The notes under the pieces: model-generated
Databases searched by the model: none
What the model was told of the DNA's origin: nothing
The model's input: the letters and a program-made list of their open reading frames with translations, nothing else
Assembly (NCBI GenBank): GCA_026770615.1
Contig: MU632052.1
Coordinates: 4,716-24,815, forward strand
From: Pavlovales sp. CCMP2436
Lineage: Eukaryota > Haptophyta > Pavlovophyceae > Pavlovales
Reading direction: 5' to 3'
Length of the DNA: 20,100 nt
Part shown: positions 966 to 19,500 of the stretch, piece by piece
Position numbering within the stretch: the stretch's first letter is position 1
Layout: each line of letters begins with the position of its first letter
Translations under genes and position numbers: made by a program

Positions 966-2667
966 TTCTTCCGCCGGTGGACGGTCAGCGCGCGCTGCAG
1001 CTCGCGGACGTGGCGGCCTGGCTGGTCATCAACTCCATGCGCAGCGAGACAACACAGGTACTTAGTTATTGTCATGAAGGAAAGCAAAATTATGCACAAA
1101 ATTTTGCAGACTGAAGTAGACCACTTGCTCCAATAGACTGATTGTTATTTCAAAAGCAAACCCGATTTGTTTGGCAATTGCCCCGGATTCGGCCGAGTTC
1201 GGATTCGAATTAGTCTGCTGTCACGACTTGTTACACAATCGTACTCGCACCAAACTAACTTATACGATCACAAACATGACATTAATACTTCACCTCTACT
1301 ACCATCTCTGCTGTCAGGACTGATGTCGGACGTCGACGAAGGCAGTGAGTGAACACCACCTGTTGAACCATGCTGAGCAGCTAATAATAACTTATACTTA
1401 TACTACGCATATATCATGAAAGCCACCTCCCTCGACGCATAGGGCGTTTGCGGGTGTGTTGAAGGGTCGTACTAACTAACTAACTAACTAACGCAAACAG
1501 TTCGACCAGCTTAACGCCCAGAACCTCGCCAATATCTGGCGCAAGAACGCCTTCAAGCAGCTCATGGGGGGCTACACGGCCTTCCGCGTCAAGGGTGGGT
1601 TGCTGTCAAGTCATGCATGTGTGTGTGTGTGTGATGTGATGTGATGTTATGATGCCCCTTCAGCACAACCGCCAGCGCCCTAGGCAATGGGGGAGGTGGC
1701 ATTCTTGATATCTGCAATGGGCCGGTTACTGTTTGGCAAAGTAGAATTTGGTGGGCCTGGCATCGAAGCTACAAGACGGGTGCGCCGCCACGGGGCCGGC
1801 CTTGACCCAGGAATCCGAACCGGGCCCGGCACGGAACCGGTTCCCGTTACCACGCCGTTTAATACGGGCTGCTAGGAAACACGAGCCAGGCTCATTATTC
1901 CTTGTGTGAACATTTCCAATGTAACGTCCGTCCCCGGATGGGTCAACCCGGACCCGAGCGATGAGAAACACTCGACTAAAGGCAACAAGGCTTCTGTGTT
2001 ACAGGGGATCGCGGGCAATAAGAAACCGTCATGTTAAGAAACTGGGCCTCATTTTTGTGCCCTTTAATGGTAATTTCGGCAAAATTAAAGCAATGTGTGT
2101 ATGTATTTGCTAAGAAACTGAGCCCCCGTCTCAAAATCGCCCTTCTTACTGCCCGCGACCCCTGGTAAGGGTCATCGCTGTAACTGCCCTTTATCTCAGA
2201 GTGTGGCACAGAGTGTGACAAGGGGCAGTTACACTCGGTGTCACACTCTGTGCCCTTAAGGGTTAATCGCTGTTTTTACCCTTTGTCTTTTGATGTCACA
2301 CTCTGTGCCAGAGTCGTCACACGCTAGCCTCGCTCAGAGCTCCGAGTCTCGTTGTGCTATTATATTTGTCGACAACAAATAAGTATTACCTTGTGTAAGA
2401 CTACTAATTCCTGACCGAATTGATTGATCCGGACCAGCGGCCAAAGCCGCGCGAAAGCGATGAATTAACAAGCCAACGGCAACGCTATCGGTCACTAAAT
2501 TAGTTGTATGTAATAGCCTCTCTCAGAGTCGTCTCGTGTTAATGGAGGAAGCTCTTAGTGAGGCTATCGTGTGACGTTTCACTGTGTTGCCTACAAGTCG
2601 AGCAGCTCTCTGTCTCTCTCTCTCTCCCTCTCCCTCTAACACACACACGCACACATAACCATTCCCC

Positions 2668-2712
<45 letters not shown>

Positions 2713-3053
2713 GCAGCAGTTCGCGTTATTAATAATTACAAATAACCAGTCGGGGGAGGGGGGGGGATTATCTTACCTCCCCCCCCTTCCCCCCTCCCCC
2801 ACCCCATGCCCACCCCCGCAGACGAAGACGCGCAGCAGTTTCTTAGCAAATTATATACACACAATGGTTAAATGTCGCTTAAATATTATCGAAGGGCACA
2901 CAACATGAGGTTCAAGTTCTCAACGTTACGGCTTCTTATCGCCCGCGACCCCCTGGACTACACATAACCGCAGATGAAGACGCGCAGCAGTTCGTGCTCG
3001 AGTCGCTCGGCCACGCGTTCCTCTCCGCAAAACTGGGCAACACGGGTCGGCAG
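966..3053 (+). CDS. Exons 1-3: unrecognised N-terminal segment (residues 1-88)
   Basis: Exon 1 (966-1057) reads LPPVDGQRALQLADVAAWLV and onward, after a gttag acceptor and before a gtactt donor. Exon 2 (1501-1594) contains FDQLNAQNLANIWRKNAF and ends one base into an Asp codon that exon 3 (2974-3053, DEDAQQFVLESLGHAF) completes. Coding-like GC content and the phase match across both introns support them. The exon 1 acceptor is the weakest: a ctag acceptor at 911-914 is also open in frame but would add AT-rich, Tyr/Asn-rich sequence that looks intronic. I recognise no domain here. The segment is predicted helical and leads directly into the thioredoxin-like fold, so it may be its N-terminal extension. 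Confidence 0.68.
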
Positions 3054-6000
3054 GTAAAATTTATACAGGGGGTCGCGGGCAATAAGAACGGCGCTTTTGA
3101 GACTGAGGCGTGGTTTCTTAGCAAATCACATACAAACAATGGTTAAATTTTGCTTAAATTACTATTGGAGGGCACACAAATGAGGCTCAGTTTCTTAACG
3201 GTACAGTTTCTTATTGTCCGCGATCTCCTGTACCTATTCTGCTGAAGCCAGGTCTCGGTTGCCAGGAATATAAAAAAAACCGTACTGGTTAAAAACCAGT
3301 TTACAGTTGTACGCGGGCCAGCAGATAACTAATTCGCTTATCCTATAAGCTAGACTCCAGGCATCTCAATAGGAGATACGGTGGGATTGAAGAAGAAGAA
3401 GAAGAAGAAGAAGAAGAATGATAATAGTCATAGTAATAGTAATAATAGTAATAATAACACAAATAATAATGATAATGATAATAATAATAATAATAGTCAT
3501 AGTCATAGTCATGGTCAAGGTCATAGTCCTAGTCCTAGTTCAAGTTAGAGTCCTAGTCCTAGTCCTAGTCCTAGTCCAGTCCTAGTTCCAGACCTAGTCC
3601 AGTCCTAGTCCTAGTCATTAGTCATAGTCATAGTTATAATAACAACAATAATAATAGAACCGTATTAATCGTAATCGTAAGAATGATAACAATAACAGCA
3701 ATAGTAGTAGTAGTAGTAACATTAATCGTTCGGGGTAGAGGGCAGGAATGGGTAAAACTTTGGTGCGAGTACGAATGTGTAACAACTCGTGACAGCAGAC
3801 TGATTCGAATCCGGACTCGGCCGAATCCGAGGCAATTGCCAAGACATGCAGACGCAGTTGCAAAACTTCAACTTCTTCTTCATCTTCTTCATCTTATATT
3901 ATTACTACTATAATTCTTATTCTTATTCTTATTCTTATTACAGGCGCTCGACGGTAAAGTTGTCGCCCTCTTCTTCGGGGCCGAGTCCGACACGACGGAC
4001 GCCCTCTTCGCCTCGTCGGTCGGGATCAACCTCGTGCAGGTGATTTTTTCTTTTTCTTATTACTAATGCTACTATTATTTATAATGTGTGCGTGTGTGTC
4101 GCCACGTTCGCTCCCGACTTGGAGGGGCAGGCGTTCTTTTTATTATTATGTATTTATTTAATTATTTGTCAATTTCAAGGCTCGTCGGTCGGGATCAACC
4201 TCGTGCAGGCAATTTCTAATTTTTCAGATGCCTTTGTTTGGCAATTGCCTCGGATTCGGCCCAGTCTGGATTCGAATTGGTCTGCTGCCACGAGTTAATG
4301 CACAATCGTACTCGCACCAAAACAAAAATTAAGAATTACCTTGTGTAAGACTACTAATTCCTGTCCGGGTTAACTAATCCGGACTCAGTGGCCAAAGCCG
4401 CGCGGAAGCTAAAGCAAACCGGACATAGAAGTCCAGCATTCCCGTCTAATCACTCCATAGCTTCAAACACGTGATTTCTGCTAATTTCTTCTCTTCTCTT
4501 CTCAGCACAATTTCGCGCCGCAATTGCACTGGTTTTTGAGGCCATATATTAATATATTAATGAAGGAGGGGGAAGGGGGGGGAGCCTGTGACATCTGCTA
4601 CTTCTTCGTCACCAACCTCACCTCTACCACCAGCCCTGCTGCCAAGACTAATGTCTGCCGTCGACCAAGTCAGTGAGTGAACACCATCTGTTGAACCATG
4701 CTGAGCGTCTCTCAAAATGCGTGTTTCTGCTGACACGATTCGTTGCAAAATCATGCTTGCCGCGTAACATTTTCTACCGCAAAATAAACGCCTCCATCGA
4801 GAATGCCGAACCAGTACTCTTCCAAATTCCCTTCCTTTTAAATCTCAGCCACCTTAATTTTTCCCGATTTGAAAAGTGGCTATTTTTGGGCTGCAAGTCG
4901 GGGGACGTTAAAAGAACTATTATTAAAAGTGACAAAAAAATGGCGGTGTTTTGAACTACAGGCGCTCAGGACCGTGTACGGCCACTTCGGCGATAGTCTT
5001 GAGGTGGTCTTCGTGAGCGCCGCCGGATCCCAGGAGTGGTTCGCCGACGAGTTCGCCGAGCACCCCTGGCTGGCGATTCCCTACTCCCACACCGCGCGGC
5101 GTAAGTTGCTGCGCGAGACGTTCAACGTCACCTCGGCCACTGAATCACTCGGTAATTGCTCCTTTTTGTTTTGTTTTAATCGTGGTTCTTTTAGCGTCCT
5201 CCGACTTGCAGCCCGAGGGCGTACGGTCATGGCATGGGTGGGTCGGCGCATCGGTCGTCTCATGCGCTTGTTTCACTACCCGCGTCGTCTCTTCGCCACT
5301 CCTCGTCGCTACTGTATAATTTTGAAGAAGTCGTGCACTTATTTGAGCTTGGGAATAATGAGCTTGACTCGTGTTCCCTGGCGCCCCGTATTAAACGGTG
5401 TGGTAACGGGAATCAGTTCCGTGCCGGGGCCGGTTCAGATTCCTGGATCGAGGCCGGCCCCGTAGCGGCGCGCCCGTCTGGTAGCTTCGTTGCCAGACCC
5501 ACCAAATCCTACTTTTGCCAAAAAGGCGTGTTCTTTGAGAATTATCCTCCCCCCGATCATGACGCTCGCAATGACTCGTATTGCTAAGCCATTGTATGCC
5601 CTCCTCCGACTGTCTTCCCCTGACTGCCTGTCCGCTACATACAACATCCATTAGTCGTTTTGCTCGACACGGATGGCCGCACGATCACACGCGACGGCGC
5701 ACGGCTCGTGCAACTGGCGGCGGCGGCGGAGGCGGCGGATGAGCACCACAAGAAGGTTTTTTTTTTTTTTTTTTTTTACTAATAGGTATTCAAGCTGGCG
5801 TCTGACTGTCCTGGAAGTTGTGCTTGTCTGAACGCTGCGTCGCCCATTGCTTACTGCGTGCCTTTCTTGAAATATTAATAAGTGGTGGGGACGGTATCCG
5901 TGTGCTCTGCAAAGGTCCCTTGATCCGAGTGTTTCTCAACACTTGGGTCCGATGGAGACCTGTCAGGGGACGGACGTATTTCTAGATATGTACACTATTT

Positions 6001-9000
6001 CTGCTCTCGCTCTCTAAGGGCCCATCACTCTTCGCTGCCCTCCTCACCTTCCGCTGCCCTCTGCTCCCCTCCCTCTCCGCGGCCCATTCGCTGCCCCCCC
6101 TCTGCTCCCATCCCTCTCCGCGGCCCATTCACTGCCCCCCCTCTGCTCTCCTCCCTCTCCGCGGCCCATTCGCTGCCCCCTCTGCTGTCCCCACTCTCTC
6201 CGCCCACCCATCGCTGTTCGCGAGCAGCGCCTGCTTGAGTCGCAGCACGACCTCGAAATGAGTGCGCGCGAGCGCAAGGTGCTCGCCCGCGACGAGGCCA
6301 AGGTCAAGCCGATTGAGTATGAGCTCAGCGCCGCGCTAGAGAAGGTGCGCTTGCTGGAGGCCGATGACCTCGCCGAGGTGACGGCGTTTTTCGCGCTCTC
6401 CTCCGTGCCAGAGCCGCTGCAGCAAGAGCTCGACAACGCGGCGGCAGGCTACGGCCGAGCGGTAGAGGCGGTGCGCGCGCTGAGCGCCGAGCAGGTCGCG
6501 CACTTTGCCGGGCTCAGGGCCCCGTCGGAGAAGGTGTGCGTCCTCGCCGAGACAGCGTGCCTCGCTTTCGCGCTCAAGCCCGACTGGCCGACGTGCGTTC
6601 AGAAGCTGCTCATCGTCTCAACGTTCGCCAGCCGCGTCGCCAAGTTTGAGCGCGACGCGGTGCCGCCGGCCGCCTTGCGCGCGCTCGCAAAGTACGCCGC
6701 TGCGGGCGCGGCCAACGCCGCAGCGGTGCAGCGCGAGGGCGGGATGGGCGCGCTTGCGCTGCACGGGTGGCTCGTCGCGCTCTCGCACCTGGCCGACGCG
6801 TCTGACGAGGCGCGCACTGACTCGGACAAGGCGAGCGCCTCGCACACGATGGGCCTCGTCTGCGAGTGCGTGTGCGACCTGCTGGGACTTGAGGAGGCGC
6901 CAGACCTTGCGGCACTCATGGCCGTCGCCGCGACGGCCGAGCTTGCCGCGTCGGCGGGCGGCGCGCAGGGCGGCGATGACGACGACGACGAGGAGGAGGA
7001 TGCAGCGGAGGAGGAGGAAGCCGGCCATCTGGAGGCGGTTCAGTCGCGCCTGCTGCGGATGAAGCAGTTTGCCACGATCCTCGAGAAGGACATCCGAGCG
7101 ACCAAGGCCACCGTCGGCCCGATGCTCGACCAGCTGCGCTCTGCCGCGTCGGCCATCAACCAGTTCGAGCAGGGCAACTTTGAGAACCTCTGCCGCAACC
7201 CGCAGATCGTCGAGGTGAGTCCCCCCCCCTCTCTCATTCTGTGCAAATGTCTAGGAGTACGTCCGTCCCCTGACAGGTCTCCACTGGACCCGAGCGTTCA
7301 CTCGGATCAAGGGACATTTGCAGAGCACACGAATTCGTCCCACTGCCCTGAACCCGTCCCCTCCCTCCCATACCACTGCCCTGAACTCTACCTTCTGCGC
7401 CCTGACGACCCTCCCACTGCCCCCCCCCATCCCACCCCCACCCCTCTTGCCACCAGGGTGACGAGGTCTGCCGCGACACTTTTGCCTTCACGATCAAGGC
7501 ACTCGACGCCGCGGACCCGTCCAACGCCAACAAGAAGCCGGCCGACGACGAGGGCGCGAGCAAGAACGAGCCGCTGGCCGTGCAGGTCAAGAAGCTGCTG
7601 GGATTCGCCGGTGACCGCCTCGTGGGCGAGAACTACAGCCTCTTCTGCGGGCGTGTGGAGCAGCTTTCTGGCGAGGCCGAGGCGGGGAGGGTGCGTGTAG
7701 AGGAGTGGCCCAAGCTCTGCTCGCTCGGTACGTCGATCACGCATGCGCTGATGTAGCGGACGTGCCCCCCCCATTCCCCCCTGAGAATACAACTGACTTG
7801 CCCCCCCACCCTCCCCCTCCTTGCACGTCAGGTACTTCGATCACGCACGCAGTCAACTCAAGCGGCCGCAACAACGGCTCGGCTGTCAACCAGGTTTTTT
7901 TACGATAGTTCTTTTAATTTCCCCCGACTTGCAGCCCGAAGGCGTATGGGCATGACACGGGAGGGTCAGCGCATCGGTCGTCTCATGTGCTATCTTACTC
8001 CCCGCGTCGTCTCTCCGCCACGATCCTGAGATTGGTATAGAGATACATATACATGGACATGTACATCTGACCCACTGCCTATTTACTTGCATTCCTACTG
8101 CCTCATGACAAGTTCTAAATTATATATTATATATCTATATCTATACCAATCTCATGACCAGTTCTCGTGCGTGCGCTACCTCTCGTCGTGGGCACGCGCG
8201 CTGGGGTCCTACCTCGAGTCGTACGGTGAGCTGCTCTCCAAACAGAAGCAACTGGATGCGGTGCGCGCCGAGGCGGCGGCGGCGCAGAAGATCATTGACG
8301 AGGACTTGCACGCCGTCATTGCCGCCGAGTCGGCAACCCTGCCGGCCGATGTGGACCCGCTCTGTCTGCGCTCCGTCAGGAAGCAGCTCCGCCAGCGCGG
8401 TTTGCGCGCCGTGCCGCGCGCCGCGCTGATTGTCGCGCTGCAGAAGACGCTCAATAGCGAGGACGAGGCGCTTGAGCTGCTGCAGCGGCTGCCGCGCGCG
8501 CGCTCGGCGCTCACGTACCTCGCGCAGCCGAGCAAGCTCGCCGAGCTGCTGTTGCCGGCGCTGCTGCCCAGGCAGCTGCGCAAGGTGCGCCAAGCCCTCT
8601 GGCCCTCTCTCTCTCGCCCTCTGCGCAATGCCTATGTGACCCCCTGTGTGACCCTATCTGACTCGTGTGATCTCCATGCCCCCCCCCCCCCCAGGTGAGC
8701 GCGGTGCTGCGCGACGGGCTCCTTCTCGCCACCTCCGCGGTGGGCGACGAGCTTCGTGCCGTGATGGTGGCCAAGACGGCAAGGGTGCGCGAGGCGGCTG
8801 AGGCGAAGAAGAAACTTAAGCTCGAGGCCAAAGCCAAGGCCGGCGACGCCAGGAAGGCGGCGGCCGAGGCGCGCGCGCTGGCCAAGATGCTCGTCAAGAC
8901 GCTCAGGGCCGAGGAGCGCGCGCGCAAGGTGGCGGCTGGGAGGGTGAGCGGGGAGACTGAGGAGGACGAGGAGGACGAGGAGGATGACGAGGAGCAGGGC

Positions 9001-12000
9001 ACGTCGGCCGCCGAGGACGACGACGACAAGGAGGGCGGGGAGGAGGAGGACTACGTGCACGAGGACGTGTTCACCGAGAGCGACCGTGTGATCGGCAACT
9101 GGAAGGACTACGGGAGCTGGTATCCCGGACAAGTTTGCCGGTACGACCCGGAGACTTCCACGTACGAGATTCACTACGACGACGGAGACCAAGAGGTGGG
9201 CGTACTACTTCTAACCCTAACCTTCACACAACTCTCTGATTGCCTATAGAGCAACAACTTCAACCCAAACCCCAACTCAACCCTAAAGGGGATCACGGGC
9301 AATAAGAACGGCGAATATAAGGTAGGCGTGCTACTGTTTAGCTATTTATTCGTAAATACTCAATTAGACTTTACAGAAGTTATTGATGTTTGAGCGCTCA
9401 GCCCTGGTAATTCGTCGCCGGGCCTGCTTTAGCTGGGCTGCGCCCGTGAGTAGAGATCTGGTGCAATTGATCAGAAGATAGTACCCGAACACGAGAAATG
9501 TGCCATTTTCGTTATTGCTGCACACAACTCTCTCACTGCCCACAGAGCAACAACTTCAACCCAAACCCCAACTCCAACCCTACAGGGGATCGCAGGCAAT
9601 AAGAACGGAGAACTTGAGGCTGAGGCTCGGTTTCTTAGCAACATACATACAGACAATGGTTAAAATTTGGTTAAAATTACTATTGAAGGGCTAAAAAATG
9701 AGGCTCAGTTTCTTAACGTTACGGTTTCTTATTGCCCGCGATCCCCTGTACTCAACCCCAGATGGGCGTGCCCCCAAGCCGCATGCGGCGCGAGAAGAAC
9801 GACGGCGACGAGGAAGAGGACGAGGAGGCCAAGCCCGACGCGTCGGACGAGAGCTTCTCGTGGACCTTCTCCGCGCGCATGCTCAAGCTCCCCGAGGGTG
9901 CCGAGCCGCCCGCGCTCACGCGCGCCGAGACGGCACTGCTCGCATGGCTCGTCGCAACAATGGACGCGGCCTCGGCGCTGCAGGCGACCGAGCCGCAGCG
10001 GCAGAAGGTGTGTACATATCCATCAAAACGTTCGGCCCTGAGAATATTCCGAACGAGCCTGAATATATAATTGTAAACTGGTTTTTAACTAGTGCGATTT
10101 TTATTTTCCTAACAACCGAGACCTGGCTCCAGCAGAAGACGCACGAGCGTGACATGGCCAGTTGCCAACGCCTCGTCGCTGTAGACCTGATCACCTGAGC
10201 CCTAGCCTGACCCTGCATCTCTGCACCACTCCCCTCCTGCAGGTGGCCATGCTCGACCGGCGTCTGGCGAGCCGCACGCGCGACCTGGATCGGCAACTCT
10301 CGCTCAAGCGCGCCAAGCTCGCTGCCAAGGCCACGGCGCTGGGCATCGATCCCTTCCCGCGGACGGCCGACTTCCCGTGGGCTTTCCTCAAGGTACAAAC
10401 ACACACACACATACATGCGCGCACATAAACACACACGCACACACATGCGTGCACATAAACACACACATGCACATAAACACACACTTCGATCCACATGGGC
10501 GCTGAGGTGATTGCCCTGGAGATGGGCCGCTTTGACGGTTTTTTTTTGTTTTTTTTGCAGGAGCGCTCGGCTATCGAAGACGAGCTGCGTCTCGCCATCG
10601 GCCTCCGCGATCTACGGACGCTTGACGCGCTCATTCCACACGCCGAGGGCAGTGGCCTGCACAAGGCGACGTCGAGCGTGCTGTTCGCCGCGCAAGAACT
10701 GTGTGAGACCCTCCACGCCGAGGGCGCGACGACGCGGCGCGTGGGCAAGCTCTCGATCCACGATGGGCGCGCCGTTCGCCAGCCCTCGACGCCCAAGCAG
10801 CAGGTGCGCTGTTATATTTCTGATAGGGATTCAAGCTGGCGTCTGACTGTTCTGAATGTTGTGCTGGTCTGAGCGCTGCGTCGCCCATTGCCTGCTGCGT
10901 GCCTTAGTTGGCTGCGCTGGCTTGGGCGCCACCGCGCGTGCCAATGGATCTCCGGTAGTGTGCCCAGGCAATCGCTGTTATATACTATTCGGAAGGGGGG
11001 GGGATGCTCTGATTCATTCTGACATTTATTCGAGTAGACTAACCGCGACTTGTTAATTACACTCAATCCTTGTAAAGGCCCCGGCCGACACGCCGTTGCG
11101 CGCCGAGCTGACGCGCGCGCTCGACGTCTTCATCGAGCACGTGGAAACGGACGTGGGCGAGGGCGTCCCCGTCGCGCGCAAGTTTGTGGACGTGCTCGCA
11201 GAGTACGTCTATTGATTCCTAGCTAATGGTTTAGGACCTCAGCCCTCGGCCCTTTTGGGCCGAGGTCCCGAGTTCAAGTGTTGGTGCTTTACGCCTTTGG
11301 CCCCTTTTCAAGTTCTCGCAGAGGACGCATATTTCTTCTCTGCTTTTCTTCTCTCTCTCTCTCTTTCTGCCTTTGTGAAGCTGATCCGAGTCATGGTTGA
11401 TTGGTTGATTGAAACGGGCAGGGGTCGGCTATGGTCAAACTTACATACGAACAATGCTTAAATGTTATACAGGCGCAAGGATGACTTCCTCGACTTCCTC
11501 ACGAACAATGCTTAAACTTACATACGAACTATGCATAAAATTACATGCGAACAATGCTTAAACGTCATACAGGCGCAAGGATGACTTCCTCGACTTCCTC
11601 ACGAGCGAAGAGGATCTGGCAATGGTTTCGAAGATCCTCAGCGCCGTCTCGAACAGCGAGGGTGTTGGCGAAATCGAGACGGAGCAGTGCCGCGAGCAGG
11701 AGGCGGAGAAGGAGAAGGTACTTGTCGACAACAAATCTCACCGGGCCAGCCCCCTCTTCGTTTGAGAGTTTTTTGGGGAAATGATATTAAATGAATATGA
11801 ATAATTTCTTGTTTGAAATTCTGAAGAGACGTCTAGACGCAGAATTGAGCAGTGCCGCGAGCAGGAGGCGGAAAAGGAGAAGGTGCGTGTCGACAACAAA
11901 TATGAGAAATACTAATTCTTTTATTTCTAATTCTCCCCCCCCCCCATACTGTGCCCACCTGAACTAATTTGCATATGAGGACCCATACTAGATATTTGCA

Positions 12001-15000
12001 CATGCCTTTTCCTGTTCGCAGCACTGCTCATCTGGAGCTGAACCCCCCCCCCCCTTGATATGTGTGTTGTCTTATTTTAGGACCAAGAGCAAGAGCAGGA
12101 GATCGAGATGGAGCGCTACGCAGATCTCGCCTACCAGGTAATAATCGTAAGAAAATGATCAATAACAGCAATAGAAATAACAAAAGAATTCAGATCTAAC
12201 AAATAGTAATAGCAATCATAGCAATAATCGAATACCTTCTAATACCTGCTGTCCACTCTCTCTTTCTCCACCCTCTCCCTCCCCTCCCCACTCTTTCCCT
12301 CCCCCCCACTCTCTCTCCCCTCCCCTCCACTCTCTCCCTCTCCACTCCACTCTGTGTGTAAATATCTAGATTACCGTCCGTCACCTGAAGTCTCCACCGG
12401 ACCCAAGCGTTGAGAAACACTCGGATCAAGGGACCTTTGCAGAGCACACATATACCTCTCTTCCCCCTCCAGCGTGACGGCGAAAAGGCACGCCGCTGGC
12501 CTTTGGACTTGTATACCATTAAAGACCTTCTGATACCCTCTATCGGTCTTCTAACGGCCTTCTCATATCTTCTAATATATTCTTATATCTTCTGTCGGTC
12601 TTCTACCGGCCTTCTAATGCCTTCTAATGCCTTCTAATGCCTTCTAATGCCATATTAATATCTTTTAATCTCTTCTATCTTCTAATCATCTCAGCGCGAC
12701 GGCGAGGAGCCACGTCGCTGGCCTTTCCACGCGCTCGAGTCGCCGACCGAGCTCTTCGAGGCTGGCGCGTTTTATCCCGCTTCAGGTGCTAATTCAGGGT
12801 GCTAATAACCCTTTTTTGAATCATAGTTCTTATAACGCCCCCTGACTTGCAGCCTGAAGGCGTACGGGCATGACATAAGACCTACTGAATAAAATGCTTA
12901 TTCGGTCTTAAAATCGTATTCAATCCTCTGCAGTGTGTACCCGACATATTGAATATGTAAGGAAGCTTCACTTTATTTGCCCACACGGTTGAAATATACG
13001 GAAGCCACCGTTGCCAGTTCTCACTCCGTTGCCCCCCCCCATTCCCTCCCCCCGCAGATTTCCGGCTCTACTCCCGCTCGTCGCTGCCGTTTCCGCAGTA
13101 CCTGCACATGTCTCGCAACTACTTTGATCTTAACTGTAAGTACCCGCACCCCCCTTCCCCCCTCCCCTCCCCCCACCCACACACACACTCCCACTCCCAC
13201 CCATATGTCGCGTAATTGCTTTGATCTCAACTGTAAGTATTCGCTACCCACCCCCCTCCCCCCCACTCCCACTCTCACCCACTAGTATTACTTCTTTTGG
13301 AAGGAACACAGATCTCTCTTGGTCGACAACAACAAATAAGAATTATCTTGTGGAAGACTACTCATTTCTGTCCGGATGAACTGATCCGGACTCAGCGGCC
13401 AAAGCCGCGCGAAAGCCAAAGCCAGTGGCAAAGCTATCGCTTAAGGTAGTCTGGATCTCAATCTAGTGTTATGCTATGGTATGATGCTCCGGCTACCGCT
13501 GGGAGCGCAGTCTCTGCGCCCAGGATGCCCCGGGTGTCAGCGTCTGAGCGTCACTCTGTTGAGCTTCAGCGTCACCTTGCGGTGGTGCCAAAGCGCCGAC
13601 AAAGCCTCGGATACTGAGTTATTTATTGCAACTCGTGCGTTGCAGGGGTCGGCGAGCGGCGGCTCAAGAACGTCGTCTGTGCGCTGGACTGGGTGCCGTC
13701 GGCGCGCGCGCTCGCGCCCGCGCCGCCTCGCGCCGCGGAGCTCAGCACAGCCCAGGTAACGTATTCTATTTTTATTACCTCAGCACGGCACAGGAAACTA
13801 ACTTGCTAATCCTCTTAGGCTAGATTCTAGGCATCTCAATAGGAGAACTGCCTTTGTCTGGCAGTTGCCCCGGATTCGACCCAGTCCGGTTTCGAATAAG
13901 TCTGCTGTCACGAGTTGTTACATATTCGTACTCGCACCACATATTCTCTTTAAATTATCTCAGGCGACGAAACTATATAATGTTTATACGTGAGAATAGT
14001 TTTATCATATTTGCACCTCATAGCGTTCTCTTGTATCATGTATAGAATAGAATGTAATATATCTCATCCCTCTTCGTCCCCCCCCCCTTATAAAGTAATA
14101 CGTATCCCGTATTATATTACCTACATTGCATATAATATATCGGAGCCTGTGTCGGAGCGCTAAGATCAGCTTGATGATTTGTCACACCGCCAGCCAGAAC
14201 CGCCCTTCATTATTTAATATAATGTGATGTATATGTATTAACGCAGGCGACCAAGCTGCGCAACGCCCCCCCCTCCCCCTCTAAAGTTATACTTATCCCG
14301 TATTATATGAATACTGATAGGGATTCAAGCTGGCGTCTGACTGTTCTGAATGTTTTGCTGGTCTGAGCGCTGCGTCGCCCATTGCCTGCTGCGTGCCTTA
14401 GTCGGCTGCGCTGGCTTGGGCGCCACCGCGCGTGCCGATGGATCTCCGGTAGTGTGCCCGGGCAAGGGCGTTTAGGGAGATGATCTGCTGGTTGCTGTTT
14501 GTCGTGTTCCCACGCTGGGCAGCGATCGGGGCCCATATATTTCATATAATTTACCTCTCGGAATAAGTGGCGTCGTTATGAACCGACGACGATGAGGGGT
14601 CTCGAGCGGAATAAAGTATATGTAATATAACATAATTTCTTTGCATTCCGCAGGCGACCAAGCTGCGCAACGCGCTGCGGCTGCTTGACACAGACGGCAC
14701 GGGCGTGTTTGAGGCGTCAGAGGTTAGTTATGTTATGTTATGTTATGATGCCACTTCTACCGCCTGGGGCGCAATCTCTGCGTCCAGGAGGCAGAGGTTA
14801 GTTATGAACTATGTTCAACAACTGCCTTTATACTAATGTTTTATATTGCTGATAGGGATCCAAGCTGGCGTCTGACTCACCCACCCCCCCGCCCATTGTG
14901 CGGATGGCAGGTGTGCGAGGCCCTTTTATCGGTTTATTTTATTCATAAAAGCCACCTCCCTCAACGCCTGGGGCGTTTGCGGGTGTGTTGAAGGGTCATA

Positions 15001-16549
15001 CTAACTTCTAACTAACTAACTAACTAACGGTATAACTAACGCCTGTGATAACACTATGGGCAGGTGTGCGAGGCACTTCGCTCCGCCGAGGACATCACGC
15101 TCACCGAGCCGGAGCTGCAGGAGCTGCTGCGCGCCGCCGCCGACGGTGAGGGCGACTCGGCACGCGCGGGGCCTCGCCGCTCGGCGGGCGGCGGGCGCGT
15201 GGGCACTGGCTTCGAGGAGACGGGGCAAGTTAACGGGCACGCGCTCACGATGAAGCAGCTGATGCGCGTGCTGACGTCGGGCACGCTGCGCAAGGAGGAC
15301 GCAGGGCGGCAGCGTGTGGTGCTCTCACTCGGCGAGGTACGCTTTTATTGGGCGCGGCGAGTGGCCGTTAGTGCACATACATACGCACCGACGCTTACTC
15401 TGACTCCAAATCGAGTGATTTTGTTTCCACCCGTTCGCACACCTCAGAACGGGAATCATGATAAGTTATGATGCCCCTTCTACCGCCTGGGGTGCAGTCT
15501 CTGCGTCCAGGTGGCCCCGGGTGTCAGCGTCTGAGCGTCACTCTGTTGAGCTTCAGCGTCACCTTGCGATGATACCAAAACGCCGTGTAAGAATATGCAT
15601 CTTCCCCAGGCGGAGACCATCCGCTGCTCAATGGCATTGTTTATATGTAAGTTTAAGCATTGTTCGTATGTAATTCCCAGGCGGAGACCATCCGCTGCGC
15701 GCTCCACCTGCGCCAAGCGCGCGCCGAGCCGCTCGTGCCCGGCGCGGACGTGCAGCTCGCGCTGCGCTGCGTGGCGGCGCAGGACGTGGTGCTCGACGCG
15801 TCGGCCGGCTGGAGCAAGCCGCCGCAGTACCAGGCGCAGGCGGCGCACAACTGGTAAGCTTCTCAGTGTTATGTTATGTAATGATGCCCCTTTTACCACC
15901 TGGGGTGCAGTTTTTGCGTCCAGGAGGCCCTGGGTGTCAGCGTCTGTGCGTCACTGTCGAGTTTCAGCGTCACCTTACAGTGATACCAAAACGCCGACAG
16001 AGCTTCGAGCGAAATCGGTATTCTCGTGAAAATGGTTGTCAGTACTGCTGTAGTATTTGCATCCATGATGACTGAACAGATCTCTAGGCAGGACGTCTGT
16101 CCCCGGAAGGTCAACCGGACGTGAGCCTAGGACCACTCCAAGCACACAGATCCCCCCCCCTCCCCCCCTAAGCCTGGTTACTCAGAGAGCCTGCGGGGCC
16201 AAACCGACTAGGGATCCTCGTATTCATGATGTCAACGTATTTGTATTTAGTACCAAACAATCAGTACCCGTTATGTGACTCTCTTCTCCCGCCCTGCGCG
16301 TCCCCACTGAACCCCTCCCCTCCCCTTGCACCCCCCCCCCCCCCCCCCCCCCCACCACCAGTTGCCGCTTCATCGACTGCGCGATGCACTTCGCGCCCGC
16401 CGAGCTTAACATCCTGCTGCGCTCAATCCCCGCGCCACCCGCGCGCCGGCGGATCTGGTTCTCGATGGCGCTCGCGTGCAGGCGACGGATGTCCAGGCGC
16501 TGGGAGCAGACGCCGCTCGCGCGCCTATTTGCCCTCGAGGACGAATGGT

Positions 16550-16582
<33 letters not shown>

Positions 16583-19500
16583 CGTGTTCCACCTGGCCAC
16601 CTTTTGCATGCCACCTCACCTCCCACCCCCCCCCTCGCCACCTACCGCCTGCAGGTCGCTCCTCAAGCAACGCGCGCAGGCGGTGCGCGTGCGTTTGGCG
16701 ATTCGCGCCCGCGGGCTGCAGCTGCACGATGCATTCGTCAAGTTCGACGCCGACCAGAACGGACTGCTCAGCCTCGCCGAGGTCTACGGTGCGCTCGACT
16801 GGCTGCTGATTCCAGACATCAACGCGGCTGACATCCTCTTCTTCGTGCGCTCGATCACTTCTAAGCCGCACATCACCTATGCCGTAAGTCCGCCCTCGGC
16901 CCTCCTTTGGTCCCCCCCCCCGGTCCCCCGGTCCCCCTACCACCCACCACTCCTGCAATGCGCACAATAATCGCACACGCCCCCTCTGCACGCATCCACC
17001 CACCCCTATATCTTCGCAGGACTTTGTCGAGGCGCTCTGCCCGCCCGAGGAGCTCGAGGGAATCAACCTCTTGGCTGACGCGGCGGCCGCAGACGGCCAC
17101 GGCCCCTCCTCGAGCAGCCCCACCTCGACGCTCGACCGCCAAAAGTCCAAGGTGGCTCCCAAGGGCGAGGCGGAGCTCGCCGCGCTGCTCGAGTCGACGA
17201 TCGACGACGAGCGGCGCGCCGAGGCCGTGCTCGAGGAGTCGGAGGCAAAGCACGTCGCCGAAGCGCAGGCCAAGCTCGAGGCGGCGCTCGTTGACTCGGA
17301 CTTTGGCTGGCTGCGCCAGGCGCGGCGCGCCGCGGCGGCAAACCCGCGCACGACGCGCACCACGTCCTTCTACGACCTGAGCCGCGGCACGCTCGGCTCG
17401 CAGGTATGGCTGAGATGATTAACTGGTTCTATCCGAACTGAGGCTGCCCATTTGGGTTTTTTTTTTTACTTACTAACACACACACACACCACTGCCCAGG
17501 AGGGCGGCCCGCAGTGGCTTGAGGGGCGTGGCAAGTGGCTCTTTGTCAAGCACGGCGGGTTGCGCTGCGTCAAGCTCTGGCCGAGTACCTTCTTGGTGCT
17601 GCGCGTCCCGTTCCGCAAGTACGTTGCCGCCCAGGGTTTTACACATTTAGGTTCCGGGAATGGGAATTCCCGGAAGATGTAAAGCCCTGTTGCCGCTCGC
17701 TGCCCTGCGCTCGCTGCACCGCTTTCGCCGCACCGCTCTCCGCTCAACGCGTGCTGTCCGTATTTCACTTGCCGCCCTTTTTCGGTGCAGGAACGGCGGC
17801 GGGACACACCTCAACCAGTACACGCTCAGCATCCACCTCAAGTGCCTCGACGCATCAAGCCGCAACCTCGTCTCGGCGGCGGGCTGGGACCAGTGGGCCG
17901 CCGCCAAGGAGAATGACGAGGAGGCGCAGCTCAAGCTCGACGGCGACTGCCGGCCGGGCGCGCTCCAGCAGTTCGGCGACGGTGACGCGTCCGCACTCGC
18001 TCACCGCGAGTGGCACACCGTCACGATGACCGTCGACACGACTGCCAACATGATGCGCACCTACGTGGACGGCGAGCAAGTATTCGCCACCCCCCCTGCT
18101 CCCTTGGCTGGCCGCTTTGCACACTTCACTCACGTCGAGCTCACGCAACTCCCCATGTTCCCACTGCAGTCGCTCGAGCTTACCTCGCCTAAGGTGGGCC
18201 GCGACGCGCAGTTCGCGCTCAAGGGTCGCCTCGCGCTCTTCTACAGCAAAACGCGCCGCGACGATGACGAGGTGGAATACGACTCGGTAAGCCACCTCGA
18301 TTTCCCCCCTACGACTCGGCCGAATTTCATTGTCTTCTGCCATGCCCCGTGCTACTTATCTCTGAGCAAAATGGCCCTTTGTATGCGACATGTAACGCTT
18401 GCATAGATCTACGTGAGGGCCGTGTCGGTGCACAACCGCGTGCTCAGCGCCGATGCCATCAAAGCCGAGGCGGCCGCCTTCCAGCGAATGCTCCTCGAGG
18501 ACGCCATCGCTGCCGCACCGCGCCACCTGCGCGCACCCCTCGCCGAGCGTCAGCTCGACGAGCCCGCCGAGTCGCTCGGCGAGTTGCGCGAGCGGCTCGT
18601 CGGGATACGCGACGAGCTCGGCGCACGCGCGAGCAGCCTGTGGGCCGCCCTGCTGATGCGCGACGGGCGCACCGCGCAGGACTTGCTCGGCTCGCTCGAC
18701 GGGCACCAGCGCATGCAGCTTTCGCACTGGCGCTCGCCCAACGTTGAGAGCGATGAGAGCGCGGGCATCCCCGGGGAGCACCTCCTCCACGCCGCCGCAT
18801 TCTCGAACAACCTCCAAGCGCTCGAGCTGCTGCTTGCCGCGGCCGAGGACGAGGCGGCACTCTGCGCGCGCGAGCACTCGACCAACTCAGTGGGCGGCCT
18901 CGAGCGCAAGCAGGCGGCCGGCGCGGGCAAGCTCGAGCGGCGCAAGGCGGGCGAGCCACCGGCCGCACAGTTCGCGAGCAGCGGGCGCATGCTGCTCGTC
19001 GATCGCGGGGAGGACGACCCAACGGGCGTCCGTAGCAAGCTCGTCAACCGCAGGGGCGCCAAGACCCGCTGCACGCCGCTACACGCCGCGGCCAGCGCAG
19101 GGCACTCGCACGTGATCGAGAAGCTCATCGACGCGGGTGCGCCCTCGTCCTCTTGCCGCTTGCTCCTGCGAGCGCCTTCTCCTCCCTGCCTCTGCGCTCT
19201 GGCCCCTTCTCCTTTCCGCCGTAACGCGACCCCCATCCCCCCGTCCATCTCCGCCCCCGCCCCCTCCCCTGCCTATACGCCGCGCACAGGTGCGATTGTC
19301 GAGGCGCAATCCGCGACGATGCGCACGCCGCTGCACTACGCATGCGCCAAGGGCTGGGCCGAAGCCGCGCTCGCGCTCGTCACCGCAGGTGCGCGCCACC
19401 GCCAGCGCCGCCACGCGTGTCGCTTGCCGCGCCCCCGTCGGCCTCACCCCCCCCCCCTTGCCATCCACGGCCTGCAGGTGCCGACCCGTACCGCACGGTT

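What the first reader, a model, noticed from the sequence alone, without database searches (positions are those of the whole stretch)
2816..15698. At least 13 of 30 introns contain a second copy of their own splice junction
Introns 2, 4, 8, 9, 11, 15 (both ends), 16, 17, 18, 19, 20, 21 (both ends) and 22 each hold a 12-64 bp direct repeat of the exon edge plus splice site. Some are acceptor copies (introns 2, 9, 15, 17, 20, 21, 22), some donor copies (4, 15, 16, 18, 19, 21), and in introns 8 and 11 the repeats flank the intron. Chance cannot explain 25-64 bp near-identities placed exactly at splice sites. The pattern implies an active process that inserts DNA at exon-intron borders and duplicates the target, giving new, shifted or longer introns. 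Introner elements are known in several algae, but a mix of duplication lengths and many different inserts at one locus is not a pattern I know.
Basis: partly seen in the sequence, partly recalled or inferred. Interest (0 to 1): 0.88.

Follow-up and report, generated by a model that had tools for sequence, protein, structure and literature searches.

The report
Introns lengthened by splice-edge duplications
In one gene of a probable marine alga, ten of thirty introns hold a second copy of their own exon edge and splice site, most likely left behind when mobile DNA inserted across the junction, which would let introns grow without changing the protein.

Summary
The window holds one 2,446-aa open reading frame in 31 exons. 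Controls gave 0 of 300 and 0 of 179, so chance is excluded. It is not one process. Intron 21's donor copy flanks an antisense, 5'-truncated LINE end; intron 16's 55-bp copy flanks a truncated piece of a multi-copy element, flush with that family's terminus. Introns 15, 18, 19 and 20 look like tandem duplications. Best reading: target-site duplication (LINE-type insertion or staggered-break repair) spanning a junction, tolerated because the outer splice site survives. Targeting to junctions is not proven: repeats in the interior of the same introns do not differ significantly when tandem arrays are counted (p = 0.08); junctions exceed them when arrays are left out (p = 0.002 to 0.015). Elsewhere 3 of 62 predicted introns show it, so this gene looks exceptional, but most of the sampled genome was withheld.

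The parts
971..19922 (+). Host gene: 31 exons, 30 introns, 2,446-aa ORF (5' end lies in withheld sequence); thioredoxin-like, EF-hand and ankyrin domains
   Evidence: the contig upstream of the window reads N
2816..2992 (+). Intron 2 acceptor: copies 2816-2840 and 2968-2992; insert 2841-2967 is mostly the truncated 3' part of TIR element A
4012..4209 (+). Intron 4 donor: copies 4012-4040 and 4181-4209 (29/29); insert 4041-4180 has no second copy in the readable genome; inner copy has GC in place of GT
7718..7850 (+). Intron 8 (7728-7831) flanked in register by a 19-29 bp direct repeat: candidate intron gain
9222..9619 (+). Intron 11 interior: 102-bp repeat (9222-9322, 9518-9619) around a ~189-bp multi-copy element (9334-9522)
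11429..11604 (+). Intron 15 acceptor: copies 11429-11504 and 11529-11604 beside a 23-bp minisatellite; tandem-type
11682..11901 (+). Intron 16 donor: copies 11682-11736 and 11847-11901 (52/55); insert 11737-11846 is a truncated multi-copy element whose family terminus is flush with the left copy
12470..12726 (+). Intron 17 acceptor: copies 12470-12504 and 12692-12726; a 10-bp minisatellite fills much of the space between
12781..12807 (+). Intron 18 donor: 13-bp tandem repeat across the donor
13105..13282 (+). Intron 19 donor: near-tandem copies 13105-13186 and 13202-13282
14078..14673 (+). Intron 20 acceptor: copies 14211-14266 and 14619-14673, with a linked repeat 14078-14117 / 14269-14308: tandem-type duplication, probably filled by elements later
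14712..14806 (+). Intron 21 donor: copies 14712-14732 and 14786-14806; insert 14733-14785 is the antisense, 5'-truncated 3' end of LINE family D with a (TTATG)n tail
14906..15078 (+). Intron 21 acceptor: copies 14906-14925 and 15059-15078; insert contains element H (14943 to ~15025) with a (CTAA)n tail
15605..15698 (+). Intron 22 acceptor: copies 15605-15627 and 15676-15698 (23/23) around 48 bp resembling the interior of element A, inverted

Best explanation
Ten of this gene's 30 introns carry a second, mostly intact copy of their own exon edge and splice site, most likely made as target-site duplications when LINE-type or other mobile DNA inserted across the exon-intron junction. Shown: the copies; the foreign element pieces in introns 16 and 21 (donor); the LINE identity of family D (by coordinates); the decoy splice sites. 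Inferred: a nick or staggered break opens about 14-55 bp around a junction, cDNA or filler DNA is joined in, and gap filling doubles the target. Because the doubled stretch contains the splice site, the outer copy would still splice at the same exon base, the inner copy becomes an intronic decoy, and the intron grows without change to the protein. Inserts wholly inside exons would be lost by selection. A minority (introns 15, 18, 19, 20) likely arose by local tandem duplication, with the same tolerance.
For: Copies and controls. Intron 16 insert: 22 of 30 other scored copies of the family start within 1 bp of the insert's first base (q77-79), and 22 of 30 stop at q187-196, about where the right copy starts. 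All 6 fetched copies run on past that point with related sequence (by eye), so the insert is truncated there, over a 4-6 bp overlap (GAGC/GAGCAG) with the right copy. Intron 21 donor: all 39 other scored family-D copies (568 candidates) stop within 1 bp of each other at q102-103, where this piece is cut, and begin at q33-43, by its (TTATG)n tail; the three other D copies in the window run longer. Two of those 39 lie 1,618 and 1,615 bp downstream, in sense, of reverse-transcriptase matches (C439, C218); C439 also has an endonuclease match 1.9 kb upstream of its RT. Three of 9 endonuclease matches precede an RT match by 1.9-2.1 kb on the same strand. Decoys: 9 of 11 keep GT or AG, and use of any of the 11 would give a premature stop. 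Inserts of introns 8, 16, 21 (both) and 22 match nothing beside their copies. Identity from 74% to 100% suggests repeated events over time.
Against: Only two junction inserts are firmly tied to mobile-element ends. In intron 21 (donor) the left 7 bp of the inner copy also match family D, so the sure duplication is about 14 bp. Intron 4's insert has no other readable copy. Intron 2's insert is a fragment of a TIR element whose whole copies show TA at both ends and no evident long repeat (by eye). Intron 21's acceptor insert is longer than element H on both sides. No adjacent flanking repeat was found at 3 other copies of the intron 16 family within ~1.5 kb; the best match near the element was 10 bp and not flush. 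Introns 15, 18, 19 and 20 look tandem. Elsewhere only 3 of 62 predicted introns show junction copies (5 of 62 by BLAST). No RNA reads, and no alleles or orthologous genes lacking the inserts, were available.
Confidence: 0.58

Rival explanations
1. Repair of staggered double-strand breaks with capture of filler DNA, without retrotransposition: overhangs of about 14-55 nt are filled in and whatever DNA is at hand (element fragments, minisatellite, unique sequence) is joined in.
For: Inserts are heterogeneous: truncated TIR element (intron 2), no second copy (intron 4), minisatellite (intron 17), sequence like the interior of element A (introns 15, 22). Short overlaps occur at joins. Daphnia neointrons show such repeats (PMC4202315).
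Against: In introns 16 and 21 (donor) one end of the insert is the natural terminus of its family, unlikely for random fragments. The repeats here are longer than the 4-12 bp reported for Daphnia exon ends.
Confidence: 0.27
2. Local tandem duplication of junction-spanning segments, with later insertions separating and disguising the copies.
For: Introns 15, 18, 19 and 20 have adjacent or near-adjacent copies or, in intron 20, a linked 40-bp repeat showing that a larger unit was doubled. Tandem duplication occurs elsewhere in this genome: L005 and L013 (188 bp at 98%).
Against: Inserts of introns 8, 16, 21 (both ends) and 22 match nothing within 250 bp beside their copies; introns 4 and 17 show only weak low-complexity matches. 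Intron 2's insert matches element A of intron 3 at 82%, less than that copy's 87-92% to its best relatives elsewhere. The inserts of 15 and 19 (24 and 15 bp) gave no match and are too short to judge. An element sitting exactly at the boundary of a 55-bp tandem pair (intron 16) would be a coincidence.
Confidence: 0.1
3. The pattern is an assembly artefact, for example collapsed haplotypes joined in series.
For: Two copies are identical over their whole length (introns 4, 22), and no reads could be examined.
Against: Copies span 74-100% identity with different inserts, the 2,446-aa frame is intact, and a 447-aa part of the gene finds no second locus in the readable genome.
Confidence: 0.03

Closest known systems
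Neointrons of Daphnia pulex formed by staggered-break repair (PMC4202315)
   Same: Direct repeats of exon termini and of intron interiors, repeated insertions in one intron, length growth (55 of 90 neointrons with internal repeats; abstract and passages seen).
   Different: There the exon-end repeats are 4-12 bp and the introns are new. Here repeats are about 14-82 bp, double existing junctions, and some inserts are identifiable mobile elements.
Introners (PMC9860276; Amoebophrya, PMC7789003)
   Same: Mobile DNA making intron sequence, with direct repeats at exon-intron borders (passages seen).
   Different: Target duplications are given as 3-9 bp for some earlier families (3-5 nt repeats in Amoebophrya) and the element is the intron. 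Here the element lies inside or beside an existing intron and the duplications are long and variable.
Non-LTR (LINE) insertion by target-primed reverse transcription
   Same: Family D: endonuclease plus reverse transcriptase, constant 3' end with a simple-repeat tail, 5' truncation, with a target duplication here.
   Different: The target duplication happens to carry a splice junction, so the outcome is a longer intron with a decoy site. TPRT features are recalled, not taken from a call.
Intron gain by tandem genomic duplication of a protosplice site (PMC2891723, PMC3443670)
   Same: A duplicated exon edge yields two splice-site copies (passages seen).
   Different: There exon sequence becomes a new intron; here the duplication spans an existing junction, in most cases with other DNA between the copies.
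Direct repeats near intron borders (Rogers and Bendich 2025, PMC11782384)
   Same: Reports 4-30 bp repeats around borders of 213 introns (abstract and passages seen).
   Different: Those compare the two borders of an intron with each other. Here in-register border repeats occur in only 1 of 30 introns; the copies lie inside the intron.

Membership tests
LINE / non-LTR insertion (intron 21 donor insert, family D) | Family encodes endonuclease and reverse transcriptase | tested here: met
   By coordinates only: 2 of 39 D copies lie 1,615-1,618 bp downstream, in sense, of RVT_1 matches; in C439 an Exo_endo_phos match lies 1.9 kb upstream of the RT.
LINE / non-LTR insertion (intron 21 donor insert, family D) | Constant 3' end with simple-repeat tail, 5' truncation | tested here: met
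   39 of 39 other scored copies start at the (TTATG)n side (q33-43) and stop at q102-103, where this piece is cut; the three other window copies run longer
LINE / non-LTR insertion (intron 21 donor insert, family D) | Target-site duplication of variable length | tested here: inconclusive
   19/21 bp here, of which 7 bp also match family D; flanks of the other D copies were not tested as a set
LINE-like insertion (intron 16 insert) | Family terminus at one end, truncation at the other, target duplication | tested here: met
   22 of 30 copies start within 1 bp of the insert's left end; 6 of 6 fetched copies extend on the right; 52/55-bp repeat
LINE-like insertion (intron 16 insert) | Target duplication at other copies | tested here: inconclusive
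   None adjacent at 3 copies within ~1.5 kb; the far ends of those copies are not defined
LINE-like insertion (intron 16 insert) | Reverse transcriptase near any copy | tested here: not met
Introner | Intron flanked in register by the target duplication | tested here: not met
   1 of 30 introns (intron 8) passes the score cut
Introner | Same element spliced as introns in many genes | not testable with these tools
   No RNA data or annotation; most of the sampled stretches withheld
Tandem genomic duplication | Copies adjacent, or DNA between them repeats beside a copy | tested here: inconclusive
   Fits introns 15, 18, 19, 20; not 8, 16, 21, 22; weak or ambiguous for 2, 4, 17
Cut-and-paste TIR transposon (element A in intron 2) | Target duplication made by the element itself explains the copy | tested here: not met
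   Whole copies show TA at both ends, no evident long repeat in 30-bp flanks (by eye); the intron 2 piece lacks one end

The most novel reading that the evidence does not exclude
Insertion in this genome is directed to exon-intron junctions (for instance by cotranscriptional nicking at splice sites), and long target duplications hand each intron a spare splice site: a splice-site relay by which mobile DNA pushes introns outward into exons without changing the protein.
Probability: 0.13. Interest if true: 0.82.

Novelty: new variant of a known kind. Interest (0 to 1): 0.5.

Why it matters
If true, it shows how a mobile element can land partly in an exon and stay harmless: the duplicated target carries the splice site, so the intron absorbs the insert. 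That would help explain intron lengthening next to exons, widen the zone in which insertions are tolerated, and leave a graded series (74-100% identity) in one gene for testing how the spliceosome chooses between near-identical sites.

Tried and rejected
Rejected: element A (TIR element) as the maker of the copies. Rejected: alternative splicing through the inner copies as their function, since all 11 uses tested give a premature stop. Rejected: introner birth as the general account; in-register flanks in 1 of 30 introns. Tried without result: adjacent target duplications at other copies of the intron 16 family (one search looked at the wrong right end, because the element runs on). Paralogs for comparison: none for the 447-aa part searched.

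The survey outside this gene is weak. A first run read withheld stretches as exons and was discarded. The second used 41 readable segments of 600 bases or more (131,884 bases), most of them around copies of element A and so not a random sample, and introns predicted by my own HMM trained on this gene alone. L001 and L031 (overlapping the window's contig) and L039 (34% GC) were left out by my choice; genes scoring under 30 were dropped before counting; of 129 predicted introns 67 were dropped by score or length filters and 62 kept. By BLAST at E <= 0.01, 5 of 62 had hits; by the scored rule 3 of 62 (2 of the 34 better-supported). Of the five, one (L005, 112-bp unit) looks like a real tandem duplication at a donor, one is the end of element A, one an exact 90-bp genomic repeat, two are weak. 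Paper searches returned no paper holding all their terms.
Full report
Setting. The window is C643:4716-24815 of an unnamed 119-Mb, 703-contig genome. It carries one gene: 31 exons, 30 introns and a continuous 2,446-aa frame with a thioredoxin-like domain, EF-hands and ankyrin repeats; its start lies in withheld sequence. Of 15 homologs found with a 447-aa query, the only two with a source name are from Prymnesium polylepis, so a haptophyte or similar marine alga is likely but not shown. The same 447-aa part finds no second locus in the readable genome.

Observation. Self-BLAST of each intron with 80 bp of exon finds junction copies at E<1e-3 in 10 of 30 introns (2, 4, 8, 15, 16, 17, 19, 20, 21, 22; intron 21 at both ends) and a weaker donor copy in intron 15. 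With a fixed local-alignment rule (score >=16, low-complexity filter) 10 of 60 junction segments, in 9 of 30 introns, match their own intron; 0 of 300 match another intron of the gene, and 0 of 179 exon-interior segments match an adjacent intron. The copies are not chance.

Against targeting. Of 217 intron-interior segments 20 repeat within their own intron, which does not differ significantly from junctions (Fisher p = 0.083). Eleven of the 20 lie in tandem arrays and two belong to the intron 20 junction event. Without these 13, and leaving out intron 15's acceptor as tandem, junctions are enriched (9/60 vs 7/217, p = 0.002); if introns 19 and 20 are set aside too, 7/60 vs 7/217, p = 0.015. 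Which comparison is fair depends on whether tandem arrays count. Interior copies also decay on both sides while exon copies are held by selection, which favours detection at junctions (inference).

What lies between the copies. Intron 16: with exon flanks included in the query, 22 of 30 other scored copies of this family begin within 1 bp of the insert's first base (q77-79), and 22 of 30 stop at q187-196, about the start of the right copy. All 6 fetched copies continue beyond that point with related sequence (by eye; three aligned), so the insert has its family's terminus on the left and is truncated on the right, with a 4-6 bp overlap with the target. The flanking repeat is 52/55 bp. No RT match listed lies within 3 kb of a listed copy. 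Intron 21, donor: all 39 other scored family-D copies (568 candidates) begin at q33-43, by the (TTATG)n tail, and end at q102-103, where this piece is cut; the three other D copies in the window run longer. Seven bases of the inner copy also match D, so the sure target duplication is about 14 bp of the 21. D copies at C439:85840 and C218:114106 lie 1,618 and 1,615 bp downstream, in sense, of reverse-transcriptase matches, and C439 has an endonuclease match 1,947 bp upstream of its RT. D is therefore very likely the 3' end of an endonuclease-type LINE, inserted here antisense and truncated. Intron 11 has, wholly inside the intron, a 102-bp repeat around a ~189-bp multi-copy element with a near-constant right end and several left-truncated copies.

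Inserts that do not fit as well. Intron 2: a truncated piece of TIR element A; it matches the element A of intron 3 at 82%, less than that copy's 87-92% to its best relatives elsewhere, so it is not evidently a local copy. Intron 4: 140 bp with no other readable copy. Intron 17: largely minisatellite. Intron 21 acceptor: element H with a (CTAA)n tail but extra sequence on both sides. Intron 22: 48 bp resembling the interior of element A, inverted (and the window sequence). Tandem type: intron 15 (23-bp minisatellite), 18, 19 and 20.

Consequences for splicing. Eight homologs were aligned: three cover junctions 15-24, four cover 17-24, one covers 22-24. They run ungapped within 6 aa of each junction covered, except P0002 at junction 17 (where its alignment begins) and P0011 at junction 21. 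So at introns 15-17 and 19-22 the outer copies are very probably the ones used; for introns 2, 4 and 8 this rests on the reading frame alone. Of 11 inner copies 9 keep GT or AG; using any of the 11 would bring a premature stop. Introns with copies are longer (median 440 vs 238.5 bp, n = 10 and 20, p = 0.009), and all 10 lie among introns 1-22, none among 23-30 (p = 0.03). Only intron 8 is flanked in register and is a candidate gained intron.

How general. In 131,884 readable bases elsewhere, 62 predicted introns passed filters; 3 had a junction copy by the scored rule against 9 of 30 here (p = 0.0017; against the 34 better-supported ones, 2 of 34, p = 0.012); by BLAST, 5 of 62 against 10 of 30 (p = 0.003). 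The predictions come from a simple HMM trained on this gene and are rough, the loci are mostly those around element A, and most of the further sample was withheld.

Mechanism. The most likely account is a target-site duplication across a junction, made by LINE-type insertion in intron 21 (donor) and probably 16, and by staggered-break repair or tandem duplication in others. The doubled target carries the splice site, so the protein would be unchanged and the intron grows. TPRT and fill-in steps are inferred from established knowledge of LINEs, not observed.

Known work. Staggered-break repeats in Daphnia neointrons (PMC4202315: abstract and passages), introners with 3-9 bp duplications (PMC9860276: passages), Amoebophrya introners (PMC7789003: abstract and passages), tandem duplication and sliding (PMC2891723: abstract and passages), a review (PMC3443670: passages), mechanisms in Drosophila (PMC3296678: passages), repeats near borders (PMC11782384: abstract and passages). 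In these searches I saw no report of existing junctions doubled by long target duplications, but I read only passages, and the library lacks most subscription papers.

Noticed in passing
window 2000-2164, 3064-3233, 9581-9751: Element A: ~170-bp TIR element (ends CAGGGGATCGCGGGC) with TA at both ends; 40 of 1,611 candidates scored in the genome.
   Followed up: partly
window 1407-1500 and 14943-15063: Element H carries a (CTAA)n tail that reads as repeated TACTAAC branch-point-like motifs just upstream of the acceptors of introns 1 and 21; 474 candidates genome-wide, 40 scored.
   Followed up: partly
window 5171-5308, 7895-8027, 12844-12876: Introns 5, 9 and 18 begin within 60 bp of the donor with the same repeat family (GACTTGCAGCC..), an introner-like placement.
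   Followed up: no
window 11431-11562 and 15628-15675; genome-wide: A 22-23 bp unit (ACATACGAACAATGCTTAAA) related to the interior of element A forms short arrays; 783 places with up to 2 mismatches, against 0 for the reversed control.
   Followed up: partly
L002, L003, L006, L022, L023: Families K and C (AT-rich 3' tails) are joined tail to tail across TA tracts, as if one inserts into the other's tail (output of 27 was cut).
   Followed up: no
L051, L053, L056-L059: The intron 16 family carries a long internal inverted repeat beyond the part kept in the window (by eye).
   Followed up: no
L013:1260-1660: A 188-bp tandem-type repeat (98%) of element A with its left flank: a recent local duplication elsewhere in the genome.
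   Followed up: partly
window 9210-9222: Short telomere-like CTAACCCTAACC at the start of intron 11 beside the 102-bp repeat.
   Followed up: no
window 8679-8694 and 16331-16361: Acceptors of introns 10 and 23 have pure C runs of 14 and 23 bases close upstream in place of a mixed pyrimidine tract.
   Followed up: no
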